NCBI GenBank assembly: GCA_017433125.1
Contig: JAFRHT010000135.1
Span: forward strand, 1 to 43,818
Source of the DNA: Solobacterium sp.
Lineage (GTDB): Bacteria; Bacillota_I; Bacilli_A; Erysipelotrichales; Erysipelotrichaceae
Length of the DNA stretch: 43,818 nt
Direction of reading: 5' to 3'
Position 1 is the stretch's first letter. Every line of letters begins with the position of its first letter. The notes under the pieces were generated by a model. It did not search any database. It was not told where the DNA came from and was given only the letters and a program-made list of their open reading frames with translations. The position numbers were made by a program, and so were the translations under genes. This document shows, piece by piece, positions 26,505-30,910 of the stretch.

Positions 26505-27695
26505 TTATCCGTTTTCTTCGGCCCGGGCTTTCTTTTCGGCTTCGGCGCGGGCTTTGCAGATATCAGCCCAGCGCGGCAGCTGGTTCAGCTGTTCGGTAAA
26601 GTCGGACAGCGCCCCCGGGATATCAATCCGCTGCGGGCAGACCGCGGCGCAGGCACCGCAGCCGATGCAGGCTGACGGCAGCTTGTCTTCCGGGAAGGCA
26701 TCCAGCTGCATGGCAATGGTGCTGCCGCTGCCGCCCCGGAGCTGGTTGTACTTGTGCAGCAGGTCCGGAATGTCAAGTTCCATCGGGCAGCCGTCACAGC
26801 AGTACCGGCAGGCGGTGCAGGGCACGGAATCCTTCATGCCTTCGGCAATTTCCATGACCGCCGCGTTTTCTGCGTCGGACAGCGGGTCCGGATGGTCAAA
26901 CGTTGCCACATTGGCCTGCATCTGGGCCATATCGGACATACCGGACAGGACCATGGTCACATTGTCGAACTGCTGCAGCCAGCGGAAGCCGAACGAAGCA
27001 GCGTCCGCTTCCGGCCGGAACCCGTGCAGCACATCCATGGCCGCGTCATCCAGTGAAGCGAGCTTGCCGCCGCGGACCGGCTCCATGACCCAGACCGGAA
27101 TGCCCCGTTCACTCAGCAGGGCATACTTCTCATCGGCCTTCTGCAGGGTCCAGTCCAGATAATTCATCTGGATCTGGCAGAATTCCATCGCGTCCCCGTA
27201 TTCATCCAGGAACTGCTTCAGCAGCGGGACATCCCCGTGGCAGGAGAAGCCCAGATGCTTAATGCGGCCCAGTTTCTTCTGTTCGATAAAATAATCAATG
27301 ATGCCCCAGCGCGGATCCTTGTAGACCTGGATGGAGTTTTCATAGACATTGTGGAGCAGATAGAAATCAAAGTAATCTGTCTGACATTTCTTCAGCTGGC
27401 GTTCGAAGATATCGGCCGGGTCGTAGGTTTCAGCGATCATGTGTCCGGGATACTTCGTGGCCAGATAGAAGCTGTCCCGCGGATACTTCTGCAGCACCCG
27501 GCCCATGACGGCTTCCGAACGGTTGTTCATGTACGGCCAGGCTGTGTCGATATAATTGATCCCGTGGCTCAGGGCATAGTCGGTCATCTCCGCCACCAGT
27601 TCCTCATCGATGGACTGGTCTTCCTTCAGGGGCAGCCGCATAGTGCCGAACCCCAGCATGGAAAGCTTCAGATCCTTGAAATCTCTGTAAATCAT
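26505..27695 (-). CDS. Aldo-keto reductase with C-terminal ferredoxin domain
   Basis: 396 residues. An NAD(P)H-linked (alpha/beta)8 barrel with the AKR tetrad Asp50, Tyr55 (DTAWPY), Lys81 (ATKYP) and His115 (LLHN). The C-terminal 100 residues carry two 4Fe-4S clusters: CTACRYCCDGCP from Cys293 and CIGCGACAAVCP from Cys343. Such ferredoxin-tailed aldo-keto reductases are common in clostridia and presumably pass electrons between iron-sulfur donors and a carbonyl substrate, which is unknown. GGAGG lies before ATG 27695 on the minus strand; an extended -10 is at 27728-27736. Divergent from the ADA-like gene. Confidence 0.93.
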   Translation of the reverse strand: MIYRDFKDLKLSMLGFGTMRLPLKEDQSIDEELVAEMTDYALSHGINYIDTAWPYMNNRSEAVMGRVLQKYPRDSFYLATKYPGHMIAETYDPADIFERQLKKCQTDYFDFYLLHNVYENSIQVYKDPRWGIIDYFIEQKKLGRIKHLGFSCHGDVPLLKQFLDEYGDAMEFCQIQMNYLDWTLQKADEKYALLSERGIPVWVMEPVRGGKLASLDDAAMDVLHGFRPEADAASFGFRWLQQFDNVTMVLSGMSDMAQMQANVATFDHPDPLSDAENAAVMEIAEGMKDSVPCTACRYCCDGCPMELDIPDLLHKYNQLRGGSGSTIAMQLDAFPEDKLPSACIGCGACAAVCPQRIDIPGALSDFTEQLNQLPRWADICKARAEAEKKARAEENG

Positions 27696-27798: not shown

Positions 27799-27821
27799 CT
27801 CCGTTAATCAGGAGGCGGTAT

Positions 27822-30314
27822 ATGACATATTTCGGACAGTTTTATCTGGATGAGGAAAAAGACATCATCGTTGATCTGGACATGGATCAGGGCGAACTTT
27901 CCTATACCCTGAAGACACCGAACCACCATACCGGGAACCTGATTACCAACCTGGCCGGGCTGTGTGACCTGCCGTTAAGTGAAGATGAAAACGGGCTGAA
28001 GGTCATCCGCGGGAAGGTGCCGTGCTACATTGACGCGCAGAACCGGGAAATCTATATCTTCCGGCTCGGCGGCACAAAGACCGCCAACATTTTTCCGGAC
28101 GGGACAATCGAGATGAAAGCCTCAATCCCGGCCGTATCCAAAACCCTGATGAGTCAGACCAAGGATTACCGGCTCGATATCCAGCGAACCATTATCAAGA
28201 GTTATATACCCCGGGAATACAAGTTCCGGACTGACCTTCATACGCATATGAATGCCAACCTGCGGCCGGATATCCTGATCGCGCTTGGAATATATCATCA
28301 GATCCGCTACCCCCTGTACTATGTGCGCAAGCTGGGACTGCGGCTGAGCGCTTCCCAGGCGGAAGAACTGGCCCGGCAGCGGGAACTGACCGCCCGGCAG
28401 TTTGCGGACAGCGGGCTGACCGGCAAGTATCTGGAGCGGAAGGTTGATGACCATACCTTTATCAATTTCGCGGCCCTGATCCTGCAGAACCTTGACAACG
28501 CGGCGTACAACATTCCGCGGATCAGGACATCCCTGGCTATCCTGAAGGATGGTCAGGCCGTCTTTACAAACCTCGAAAAGGTCTATCTGTACCGGTATGT
28601 CTTCACCAAGGGACAGCCCCACGAACAGCCGGTTGCACTGCGGGACATCGGGCAGATTCCCGACCGGGACATTGCCGCAGCCGTGAAGCAGATGCAGGCG
28701 GATCATGCCGGCATCTACGCGGACAACACACTGTTTCAGGACAAACTGCTCTGGACAGCCCGGGGCTACCGGCGTCAGGGCATTGACTATGCCGAGATCA
28801 GCGATACGACACTGGTGAAACGGCACCAGGCGGTGGAAATGCTCCGGCAGGTCCATGCCGTCATGCCGAAGATCGAGCGGGAAACAGGGGTCCTGCTCAG
28901 ATTTCTGGCGGCGATCCGCAGAATTCCGCTGACCATCGTCCGGGATAATATAACTGCGGCCGACTACCTGGAAGAGAATATCCGGGTGCTGCGGGGGATT
29001 GCAAGGGATCCGTATGTGGCCGGCGCAGACATCGTCGGTGAAGAGATCAACAGTATCCTTGAACTGCGTCCGGTCATCCGGGAACTGGTGAAAATCGCGG
29101 CAGATGACAATACATTTGTAATCCGCATCCATGCCGGGGAAAACGACAGCATGAAGGACAATGTAGCTGACAGTATCCGCTGCGTCAGGGAAGCCCTGGC
29201 CCCCGGGCAGCCGATGCCGAAAGTGCGCATCGGGCACGGTCTGTATACGGCATCCCTGCGCAGCGTGAAGGGCCGTCAGCTGATCAGTGATCTGAAGGAA
29301 AGCGGTGCTGTCCTCGAATTCCAGATCACTTCCAATGTCCGGCTCAATAACCTGAACAATCTGAAAAGCCATCCGTTGAAACAGTATCTGCGGGCGGGGA
29401 TCCGCTGTGTCCAGGGGACTGACGGCGGGGCGCTGTACGGGACGGCGAGCATGGACGAACAGCTGGCCCTGGAAAAACTGCTGGCATTAAGCCGTGAGGA
29501 TCTGCTGAAGATGCGGCAGACCGAAGAGGAAATCCTGGGGGAAAGCCGGCAGGCCATGGCCCGCAAACAGGAAGCGTTTGCGGAACTGTCAGGGACACTG
29601 GCACTGGAAGAAATCCTGGCAGCGGAACCGGCGGTAAATGAAACACGGAAGAAACCGGCGGGCAGACCCGTGCATCTTGAGGCGGCGCGGGAACTGGCCG
29701 GGCAGGTGCAGGATATGCCCTGGAACCGGTTTCCGGTTGTGGTGGCCGGCGGCAGTTTCAACAACAAAGGCCGGCACACCCGCATGAGTGCAGCCGGCAA
29801 AGCAGCGGTGGATGCCCTGCTGCGGCTGGATCCGGGGGAAGTGTTCTTCATCATCGGACACACATTGAGCGGGTATGAAAAATACCTGCTGGAGCATAAT
29901 GACAGGGGTTTCCGGATCTTTGCGATTGTCCCGGCAGAACTGCAGCCGGAGGAAGTCAGACGGCTGAAACAGGCCGGCGTTGAAGTCCGGATTGCCATTG
30001 AAGCCTCACCGATGGGTCTGTACAAGAGTTTCAATTATGAGATCTTCGAGCGCAGACCGTTTGTGCTGGCGGCCCTGGACGGCAATTCGGCGGGTGCCAA
30101 TCTGATGCAGGAAGCCCGCAACAGCAAGGGTCACGGCCGTATTTACGTCAATCCGGGCTGCGCACCCCTGCGGATCAAAGCGGCTTCTCTGCGCGGGTAC
30201 GTCACCCTGCTGGAAGATCCGGAACAGATGGCGGCAGACATCCGGCAGATCGTATCAGACCCGGCTTCCATGGGACGCATGAAAGGGCAGGAAAACAGGA
30301 AATCCATGCAATAA
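27822..30314 (+). CDS. Adenosine-deaminase-like protein fused to a Rossmann-like C-terminal domain
   Basis: 830 residues from ATG 27822 (AGGAGG seven bases upstream). Three parts. 1-130: a novel-looking beta-rich N-terminal domain. 131-560: a divergent adenosine/AMP-deaminase barrel with metal motif TDLHTHMN (His140, His142), HAGE (His437, Glu440), GHG (His472), TSN (503-505) and TDGG (Asp534); the usual second Asp of the TDD motif is replaced by Gly. A long insert (about 165-330) separates the first strand from the rest. 635-800: an alpha/beta domain beginning VVVAGGSF with IIGHTLSGYE and further GN..GAN and NPGC turns, reminiscent of SLOG/Rossmann nucleotide-sensing domains. Size is much larger than metabolic deaminases (about 330-350). 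The combination suggests nucleotide signalling or defence rather than salvage; function unknown. Confidence 0.75.
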   Translation: MTYFGQFYLDEEKDIIVDLDMDQGELSYTLKTPNHHTGNLITNLAGLCDLPLSEDENGLKVIRGKVPCYIDAQNREIYIFRLGGTKTANIFPDGTIEMKASIPAVSKTLMSQTKDYRLDIQRTIIKSYIPREYKFRTDLHTHMNANLRPDILIALGIYHQIRYPLYYVRKLGLRLSASQAEELARQRELTARQFADSGLTGKYLERKVDDHTFINFAALILQNLDNAAYNIPRIRTSLAILKDGQAVFTNLEKVYLYRYVFTKGQPHEQPVALRDIGQIPDRDIAAAVKQMQADHAGIYADNTLFQDKLLWTARGYRRQGIDYAEISDTTLVKRHQAVEMLRQVHAVMPKIERETGVLLRFLAAIRRIPLTIVRDNITAADYLEENIRVLRGIARDPYVAGADIVGEEINSILELRPVIRELVKIAADDNTFVIRIHAGENDSMKDNVADSIRCVREALAPGQPMPKVRIGHGLYTASLRSVKGRQLISDLKESGAVLEFQITSNVRLNNLNNLKSHPLKQYLRAGIRCVQGTDGGALYGTASMDEQLALEKLLALSREDLLKMRQTEEEILGESRQAMARKQEAFAELSGTLALEEILAAEPAVNETRKKPAGRPVHLEAARELAGQVQDMPWNRFPVVVAGGSFNNKGRHTRMSAAGKAAVDALLRLDPGEVFFIIGHTLSGYEKYLLEHNDRGFRIFAIVPAELQPEEVRRLKQAGVEVRIAIEASPMGLYKSFNYEIFERRPFVLAALDGNSAGANLMQEARNSKGHGRIYVNPGCAPLRIKAASLRGYVTLLEDPEQMAADIRQIVSDPASMGRMKGQENRKSMQ

Positions 30315-30349: not shown

Positions 30350-30910
30350 ATGTTGCGTAGATATGTTGCAGGGTTTATTGCCATGCGGTATGTACTGGCT
30401 GAGTTTGTTCTGGCTGTTTCTGTTCTGATTCTGGCATACATCAATGACAGGCTGTTTCCGGACAGGCTCCGCTATGGGATTCCGGCCTGTATAGCGGGGG
30501 CCGCGGTAATTCTGATCATGTATGTCCGGGACCGGATCCGTACCGCCCGGCAGCTTGGCAATATTAAAAATCAGGGCGAATACGAACACGCCGTAGTGCT
30601 GGGATATGCATTTTTTCTGGAGAACCGGGTTGCGGCATATGCCCGGGGTGATGTCATAGAGGATGATTATACCGGCATTACGGACGCAGGACAGCTGACC
30701 GGCAGGAAAGGCAGGCGGATTGTCCGGCTGACCATCAGGGGAAAGACATATAACACACAGGTGGAAACCCCGCAGCAGGCGGAACGGCTGGCGGCCTTCC
30801 TGAAAAAGAAAAACCCGGAGATCCGGCTTCATGATCTGAAGGCCAAGGGTCCGGGCACATGGAAATCCATTGACCCGGTACCGGCCGAACGGGCCGCACA
30901 GGGTATCTGA
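30350..30910 (+). CDS. Small two-helix membrane protein of unknown function
   Basis: 186 residues. Two membrane helices near 12-31 and 43-60, then a soluble C-terminal domain (about 66-186). The domain shows a helix with EYEHAVVLGYAFFLENRVAAY and a later beta/helix part KGRRIVRLTIRGKTYNTQVETPQQAERLAAFL. No family recognised. ATG 30350 has AGGAG ten bases upstream. It begins 35 bases after the ADA-like gene without a terminator between, so the two are probably co-transcribed, which makes it the best candidate partner. A terminator follows. Confidence 0.65.
   Translation: MLRRYVAGFIAMRYVLAEFVLAVSVLILAYINDRLFPDRLRYGIPACIAGAAVILIMYVRDRIRTARQLGNIKNQGEYEHAVVLGYAFFLENRVAAYARGDVIEDDYTGITDAGQLTGRKGRRIVRLTIRGKTYNTQVETPQQAERLAAFLKKKNPEIRLHDLKAKGPGTWKSIDPVPAERAAQGI

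What the first reader, a model, noticed from the sequence alone, without database searches (positions are those of the whole stretch)
27822..30314. Large adenosine-deaminase-like fusion protein with a Rossmann/SLOG-like tail
An 830-residue protein joins a novel N-terminal domain, a divergent deaminase barrel with a long insert, and a C-terminal alpha/beta domain starting VVVAGGSF. Metal-binding motifs are kept but TDD is TDGG. Large ADA-like proteins such as RdrB of the RADAR anti-phage system are known; SLOG-type domains sense nucleotides. No RdrA ATPase is adjacent.
Basis: partly seen in the sequence, partly recalled or inferred. Interest (0 to 1): 0.78.

Follow-up and report, generated by a model that had tools for sequence, protein, structure and literature searches.

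The report
Deaminase fused to nucleotide-sensing SLOG domain
A gut or rumen bacterium carries a single large protein that joins a nucleotide-altering enzyme (an adenosine-deaminase barrel with a changed active site) to a domain of a family known for binding nucleotide signals; it looks like a self-contained, signal-controlled nucleotide deaminase, but what it senses, what it deaminates and whether it defends against viruses are untested.

Summary
An 830-residue ORF (27822-30314, +, AGGAGG ribosome site) encodes an uncharacterised beta-rich N-terminal domain, an adenosine-deaminase (ADA) barrel with a long insert, and a C-terminal SLOG domain. The barrel matches solved ADAs at Z 29. The C-terminal domain, predicted alone (pLDDT 94), matches mainly SLOG proteins (Moco carrier protein, DprA, TRPM2, PpnN, LOG). 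Metal ligands and catalytic residues are invariant in 38 homologues. Two substrate-binding residues are changed: mouse Asp19 becomes Asn/Ala/Ser and Asp296 becomes Gly. The same two positions are changed in the ATP deaminase Cad1, while 25 single-domain ADAs keep Asp/Glu at the first. The likely substrate is therefore a 5'-phosphorylated purine nucleotide, not adenosine. The domains were found only together, with no conserved partner gene. The gene is nearly fixed in some gut and rumen Bacillota genera, rare elsewhere, and moves horizontally. No relatives were found in phages, plasmids or viral contigs. Best reading: a stand-alone, SLOG-gated nucleotide deaminase, working like CARF-ADA Cad1 with another sensor. 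It is not RdrB, Cad1 or ThsA by membership tests. Defence is possible but unsupported by context; a metabolic role is about equally likely. No description of the fusion was found in the papers available here.

The parts
27810..27815 (+). ribosome-binding site AGGAGG, 6 bases before the ATG
   Evidence: sequence printed
27822..30314 (+). ADA-SLOG fusion gene, 830 aa
   Evidence: full-length homologues at 50-63% identity
27822..28196 (+). N-terminal domain (residues about 1-125), beta-rich, no known match; among the most conserved parts (mean column identity 68%)
   Evidence: found only inside this architecture
28197..29621 (+). ADA-type metal-dependent barrel (residues about 126-600)
   Evidence: Pfam; fold Z 29 to ADA, Z 25 to Cad1
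28239..28247 (+). HxH metal ligands H140, H142
   Evidence: invariant in 38
28251..28253 (+). N144 at the mouse ADA Asp19 position (ribose hydroxyl binding), N/A/S in the family, D/E in 25 single-domain ADAs
   Evidence: role of Asp19 from PMC12669630
28338..28721 (+). long, mainly helical insert between strand 1 and strand 2 of the barrel (approximate limits), containing the conserved DGQAVFTNLEKVYLYRYVFTKG stretch
   Evidence: shorter in the distant relative L084
29130..29141 (+). HAGE: metal ligand H437 and catalytic E440
   Evidence: invariant in 38
29235..29237 (+). catalytic H472
   Evidence: invariant in 38
29418..29429 (+). TDGG: metal ligand D534 kept, Asp296-equivalent replaced by G535
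   Evidence: G535 invariant in 38; D/N in 25 single-domain ADAs
29727..30266 (+). SLOG domain (residues about 636-815), binding type: LOG motif PGGxGTxxE is replaced by DGNSAxxNxxQEA
   Evidence: Pfam LSDAT weakly in distant relatives

Best explanation
A stand-alone, ligand-gated purine-nucleotide deaminase. Shown by sequence, homologues and predicted structure: three domains (new N-terminal domain, ADA barrel, SLOG) that were found only together; an intact deaminase metal and acid/base centre; loss of the two Asp residues that canonical nucleoside ADAs use in substrate binding and catalysis; a SLOG domain without the LOG catalytic motif; no obligate partner gene; horizontal transfer among gut and rumen Bacillota. 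Inferred: the SLOG domain binds a nucleotide-derived ligand (ADP-ribose-like, alarmone-like or another small nucleotide). Binding changes the oligomer or barrel so that a 5'-phosphorylated adenine nucleotide (ATP, ADP, AMP or a modified AMP) is deaminated to the inosine nucleotide. The N-terminal domain and the insert probably build the oligomer, as the insertions of RdrB do. The cell thereby shifts its purine nucleotide pool in response to a signal, either to stop growth under attack or to adjust metabolism under stress. Mechanistically this is Cad1 logic with SLOG in place of CARF.
For: ADA fold and catalytic set: Pfam 4.6e-16; Z 29.4, rmsd 3.2 over 316 residues to 6n9m and Z about 25 to Cad1; H140, H142, H437, E440, H472, D534 invariant in 38. 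Altered substrate pocket: D19 to N/A/S and D296 to G, against D/E and D/N in 25 single-domain ADAs. The same two positions are changed in TaqCad1, which deaminates ATP and lacks adenosine deamination activity (PMC12669630). SLOG: C-terminal model pLDDT 94.4; leading matches Moco carrier Z 14.2, DprA 13.3, TRPM2-ADPRP 13.3, PpnN about 12, LOG 11.4; LSDAT SLOG Pfam matches in two distant relatives, 8.5e-4 and 1.4e-3. SLOG as an allosteric switch for a linked enzyme has precedent in ThsA (PMC11204291). Domains found only together. Lone gene. Horizontally spread.
Against: No biochemical evidence; ligand and substrate are unknown. SLOG Pfam scores are below curated cut-offs, so the SLOG call rests mainly on fold. 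Loss of Asp296 could also mean low or lost activity: mutating Asp296 impairs mouse ADA (Sideraki 1996, cited in PMC12669630), although restoring Asp at this position in TaqCad1 (N549D) did not give ATP deamination either. A TIR-type messenger source is not consistently present in genomes with the gene.
Confidence: 0.5

Rival explanations
1. A metabolic, non-defence enzyme: an alarmone- or nucleotide-regulated adenine-nucleotide (AMP-like) deaminase that tunes purine pools in anaerobic gut and rumen bacteria, its SLOG domain acting as the allosteric site (compare PpnN, which appears among the fold matches in pppGpp-bound form).
For: Nearly fixed in some genera: 29 of 36 genomes in the own genus and most of the nearest relatives of Bilifractor. 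High conservation (58-63% across classes). Flanked by housekeeping genes. No phage, plasmid or viral copies. PpnN with pppGpp at Z about 12.
Against: Scattered insertion sites and horizontal transfer between families, and rarity outside certain genera (5 of 296 in the class), are unusual for core metabolism.
Confidence: 0.4
2. [quoted passage not shown]
For: Same enzyme superfamily and the same two active-site positions altered as in Cad1; SLOG sensor as in ThsA; patchy, horizontally spread, stand-alone gene.
Against: No defence-island pattern in 129 neighbouring proteins (only the top 25 of 79 families are visible, and most of these are generic helicase or HTH models). No RdrA, CRISPR or TIR gene in the immediate flanks of the window gene. 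Genus-wide presence and strong conservation are atypical of immune genes. The PADLOC Cad1 match reflects only the ADA domain, since ordinary ADAs score higher with it.
Confidence: 0.3
3. A bifunctional enzyme for modified nucleotides: the barrel deaminates an N6-substituted AMP (Asn at the Asp19 position, as in N6-methyl-AMP deaminase from own knowledge) and the SLOG domain then cleaves the N-glycosidic bond like LOG or PpnN.
For: N6-methyl-AMP deaminase and LOG/PpnN structures are among the fold matches; Asn144.
Against: The LOG catalytic motif PGGxGTxxE is absent; Asp296 is lost.
Confidence: 0.12
4. A pseudo-deaminase: the barrel binds metal and nucleotide but no longer deaminates, serving as a sensor or scaffold.
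For: Asp296 replaced by Gly in all members.
Against: All metal ligands, the catalytic Glu and the catalytic His are invariant across members only 25% identical.
Confidence: 0.1

Closest known systems
Cad1 / CAAD (CARF-fused adenosine deaminase of type III CRISPR systems)
   Same: Sensor domain fused to an ADA barrel (Z about 25); the same two substrate positions changed (D19 to G, D296 to N in TaqCad1; N/A/S and G here)
   Different: Sensor is SLOG at the C terminus, not CARF at the N terminus; extra N-terminal domain and insert; no CRISPR genes alongside; not closer by profile than ordinary ADAs
RdrB of RADAR
   Same: Large ADA with an N-terminal extension and a big insert in the barrel (PMC9994260)
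   Different: No RdrA partner; C-terminal SLOG domain; no sequence match to RdrB in the PDB searches run
ThsA (SIR2-SLOG effector of Thoeris)
   Same: Effector enzyme controlled by a SLOG domain that binds a nucleotide (PMC11204291)
   Different: Effector is ADA instead of SIR2; no adjacent ThsB/TIR gene
SLOG superfamily: LSDAT/TRPM, DprA, Moco carrier protein, LOG, PpnN
   Same: Fold of the C-terminal domain; weak LSDAT Pfam matches in relatives
   Different: Its own sequence branch; LOG catalytic motif absent
Bacterial adenosine deaminase (add), PF00962
   Same: Barrel, metal ligands, catalytic Glu and His
   Different: 830 aa in three domains; ribose-binding Asp and the second Asp of TDD lost; two conventional copies exist elsewhere in the genome

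Membership tests
Adenosine deaminase superfamily (PF00962) | profile match above curated cut-off and barrel fold | tested here: met
   59.2 bits against cut-off 27; Z 29
Adenosine deaminase superfamily (PF00962) | four metal ligands plus catalytic Glu and His | tested here: met
   H140 H142 H437 D534 E440 H472 invariant in 38
Canonical nucleoside adenosine deaminase (add) | Asp/Glu at the Asp19 position and TD[DN] after the barrel strand | tested here: not met
   N144 and G535 against D/E and D/N in 25 single-domain ADAs; NCBIfam equivalog scores far below cut-offs
SLOG superfamily | SLOG Rossmannoid fold | tested here: met
   C-terminal model pLDDT 94.4; leading fold matches are SLOG members, Z 11-14
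SLOG superfamily | Pfam SLOG profile above cut-off | tested here: inconclusive
   only sub-threshold LSDAT matches, and only in distant relatives: 19.1 bits against 25.4 and 18.5 against 25.7; a divergent member can fall below a curated cut-off
LOG-type phosphoribohydrolase | PGGxGTxxE motif | tested here: not met
   DGNSAxxNxxQEA instead
RADAR RdrB | adjacent RdrA AAA+ ATPase | tested here: not met
   window flanks and about 40 homologous loci hold no shared ATPase partner
RADAR RdrB | sequence or fold match to RdrB (8FNV) | tested here: inconclusive
   not among listed rows; absence from the list does not exclude it
RADAR RdrB | dodecameric shell | not testable with these tools
   needs purified protein or complex prediction
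Cad1 | N-terminal CARF domain | tested here: not met
   PADLOC CARF_ADA match covers only the ADA part (317-564 on 344-571 of the profile); the predicted N-terminal domain is mainly beta; it was not folded separately
Cad1 | type III CRISPR locus alongside | tested here: not met
   window flanks are aldo-keto reductase, esterase-like, small membrane protein, M20 peptidase, TetR, TrmE; the whole genome was not searched for cas10
Thoeris ThsA | SIR2 domain and adjacent ThsB TIR gene | tested here: not met
   effector is ADA; no TIR neighbour in the window; the gene occurs in genomes without any PF13676 match

The most novel reading that the evidence does not exclude
SLOG-ADA proteins are a new class of single-gene, nucleotide-gated deaminase effectors: the SLOG domain senses an infection- or stress-derived nucleotide (ADP-ribose-like or alarmone-like) and unleashes ATP-to-ITP conversion without any partner protein, making them a one-component counterpart of Cad1 and RADAR shared horizontally among gut and rumen Bacillota.
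Probability: 0.25. Interest if true: 0.82.

Novelty: new variant of a known kind. Interest (0 to 1): 0.6.

Why it matters
Nucleotide deaminases controlled by a fused or bound sensor (Cad1, RdrB) are a recent kind of immune effector that corrupts the ATP pool. A version with a SLOG sensor, no partner gene and occurrence in culturable gut bacteria (for example Bilifractor porci) would show that this logic also exists outside CRISPR and RADAR. It would also give a simple one-protein system in which the ligand of a SLOG domain can be found by adding nucleotides and reading deamination. If metabolic instead, it would be a new allosterically controlled purine deaminase with an uncharacterised extra domain.

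Tried and rejected
Ordinary salvage ADA: rejected, because of the changed pocket, the three-domain architecture and two separate conventional ADAs in the genome. PADLOC CARF_ADA match as evidence for Cad1: rejected, because single-domain ADAs score up to 211 bits with the same model against 23.8 bits here. Conserved operon partner: searched by clustering ORFs around about 37 loci and inspecting 12 more; none found. Defence island: PADLOC on 129 neighbours gave only scattered, mostly generic matches. Obligate TIR partner: not supported. Viral, phage or plasmid relatives: none (the two weak plasmid matches cover only the ADA part, and the one inspected is an annotated ordinary ADA). Viral structure library: no meaningful match. 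Profile search of PDB sequences with the SLOG alignment gave nothing; only the fold search resolved it. RdrB was not among listed fold matches, which does not exclude kinship. Foreign base composition: none (gene GC 57%, window 54%). The 2015 SLOG survey (doi 10.1093/nar/gkv1267, named from memory) was not in the library, so an earlier mention there cannot be ruled out.

Full report
Observation. The reading frame 27822-30314 on the + strand encodes 830 residues. The ATG is preceded by AGGAGG and homologues start at the same residue. Pfam finds only A_deaminase (4.6e-16).

Deaminase barrel. A full-length model built on 38 homologues (pLDDT 86.9, pTM 0.83) aligns over residues 120-581 with solved adenosine deaminases. 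The best match is 6n9m, Z 29.4, rmsd 3.2 over 316 residues; Cad1 follows at Z about 25. H140, H142, H437 and D534 (metal), E440 and H472 (catalysis) are invariant in 38 sequences, including a relative only 25% identical. Two other positions are not canonical. The Asp19 position of mouse ADA, which binds the 5' and 3' hydroxyls of adenosine, is Asn in 36, Ala in one and Ser in one. The Asp296 position is Gly in all 38. In 25 single-domain ADAs fetched here these positions are always D/E and D/N. The same two positions are changed (Gly, Asn) in TaqCad1, which deaminates ATP but not AMP or ADP and lacks adenosine deamination activity (PMC12669630). The inference that the substrate carries a 5' phosphate follows from this, but it is not a measurement.

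C-terminal domain. Predicted alone it is a high-confidence alpha/beta domain (pLDDT 94.4, pTM 0.90). Its leading Foldseek and VIA-align matches are SLOG superfamily members: molybdenum cofactor carrier protein (Z 14.2), DprA (13.3), TRPM2 with an ADP-ribose derivative (13.3), TRPM8, PpnN with alarmones (about 12) and LOG (11.4). Independently, two distant relatives (L084, L086) give sub-threshold Pfam matches to the LSDAT SLOG families (8.5e-4 and 1.4e-3). The LOG catalytic motif is replaced by DGNSAxxNxxQEA, so a binding role is more likely than catalysis.

N-terminal domain and insert. Residues 1-125 are mainly beta strands and among the most conserved parts of the protein (mean column identity 68%), with no convincing profile match in Pfam or PDB sequences. 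The insert between strands 1 and 2 carries the conserved stretch DGQAVFTNLEKVYLYRYVFTKG. In the 60 relatives searched with the N-terminal profile and 116 genomes searched with the SLOG profile, neither domain was found outside the full architecture except on contigs too short to tell, and each positive genome gave one match. The three parts therefore probably work as one machine.

Distribution and movement. Homologues occur in 29 of 36 genomes of the own genus (fragments counted) and 3 of 24 of a sister family, 5 of 296 in a wider class sample, 7 of 392 in the phylum, 12 of 391 in the class of Bilifractor (one of these the distant form L084) and 18 of 116 of Bilifractor's relatives. Named records include rumen and gut bacteria. 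Identity within the own genus (mostly 53-64%, leaving out near-identical species and fragments) is no higher than to the sister family (54-60%) or Lachnospiraceae (61%). The neighbouring TrmE shows 59-73% within the genus but only 47-52% to the sister family. The gene tree mixes genera and classes: at least four label changes are forced by well-supported branches for the own genus. In 15 congener stretches around TrmE, ADA-SLOG was not found; in eight of them a relative (24-36% identity) of the small downstream gene at 30350-30910 still lies near TrmE, and several of these genomes carry ADA-SLOG on another contig. The gene is thus horizontally spread, though it has no recognisable vehicle: no relatives in phages, plasmids or viral contigs.

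Context. Around about 49 loci there is no recurrent partner. Neighbours are mostly housekeeping or transport genes, and PADLOC on 129 of them shows no defence-island pattern (top 25 of 79 families visible). TIR proteins are common in the genus, but many genomes with ADA-SLOG lack any PF13676 match, so an obligate TIR messenger source is not supported.

Explanation. The most economical reading is a ligand-gated nucleotide deaminase in one polypeptide: SLOG as switch, ADA as output. Precedents are Cad1 (CARF controls ADA, ATP to ITP; PMC11645235, PMC12669630), RdrB (ATP to ITP, insertions building the oligomer; PMC9994260) and ThsA (SLOG controls an effector; PMC11204291). Shown here: architecture, catalytic set, altered pocket, predicted fold, distribution. 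Inferred: ligand, substrate, gating, biological role. Defence is suggested by analogy and mobility, metabolism by genus-wide retention, conservation and neighbours; I rate them near 0.3 and 0.4 (these roles overlap with the main mechanism statement and are not exclusive of it).

Novelty. Searches of the open-access library for adenosine deaminase with SLOG or LSDAT found no description of this fusion; the main SLOG survey paper was not held. I rate it a new variant of a known kind: a sensor-deaminase fusion with a different sensor, an extra domain and no partner genes.

Noticed in passing
window 30350-30910: Small putative membrane protein of 186 aa directly downstream; relatives at 24-36% identity lie near TrmE in eight congeners, so it is part of the old local gene order while ADA-SLOG is not.
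   Followed up: partly
window 26505-27695 (-): Aldo/keto reductase with C-terminal 4Fe-4S ferredoxin domain, divergently oriented next to the ADA-SLOG gene; aldo/keto reductases also lie near a few other homologues, probably by chance.
   Followed up: partly
window 28122-29372 (-) and 29276-30034 (-): Long antisense ORFs (416 and 252 aa) opposite the ADA-SLOG gene; explained by G+C-rich third codon positions (GC3 0.70), not evidence of genes.
   Followed up: no
L084:907-3255 and L086:1486-3837 (small genomes of about 1.2-1.3 Mb): A separate, distant clade of the same fusion with a shorter insert and a clearer LSDAT-type SLOG tail (GGGxIVSDxIQ); possibly the better entry point for finding the ligand.
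   Followed up: partly
genomes G004 and G015 (same genus): Unusually many TIR-domain matches (15 and 45) in single genomes of the genus; G015 is a large bin with 10% contamination.
   Followed up: no
L023 (93% identical copy, Solobacterium sp. MAG) and G006:C307: Close copies with an in-frame stop; in L023 it lies near the C terminus, shortening the poorly conserved tail after the SLOG domain.
   Followed up: no
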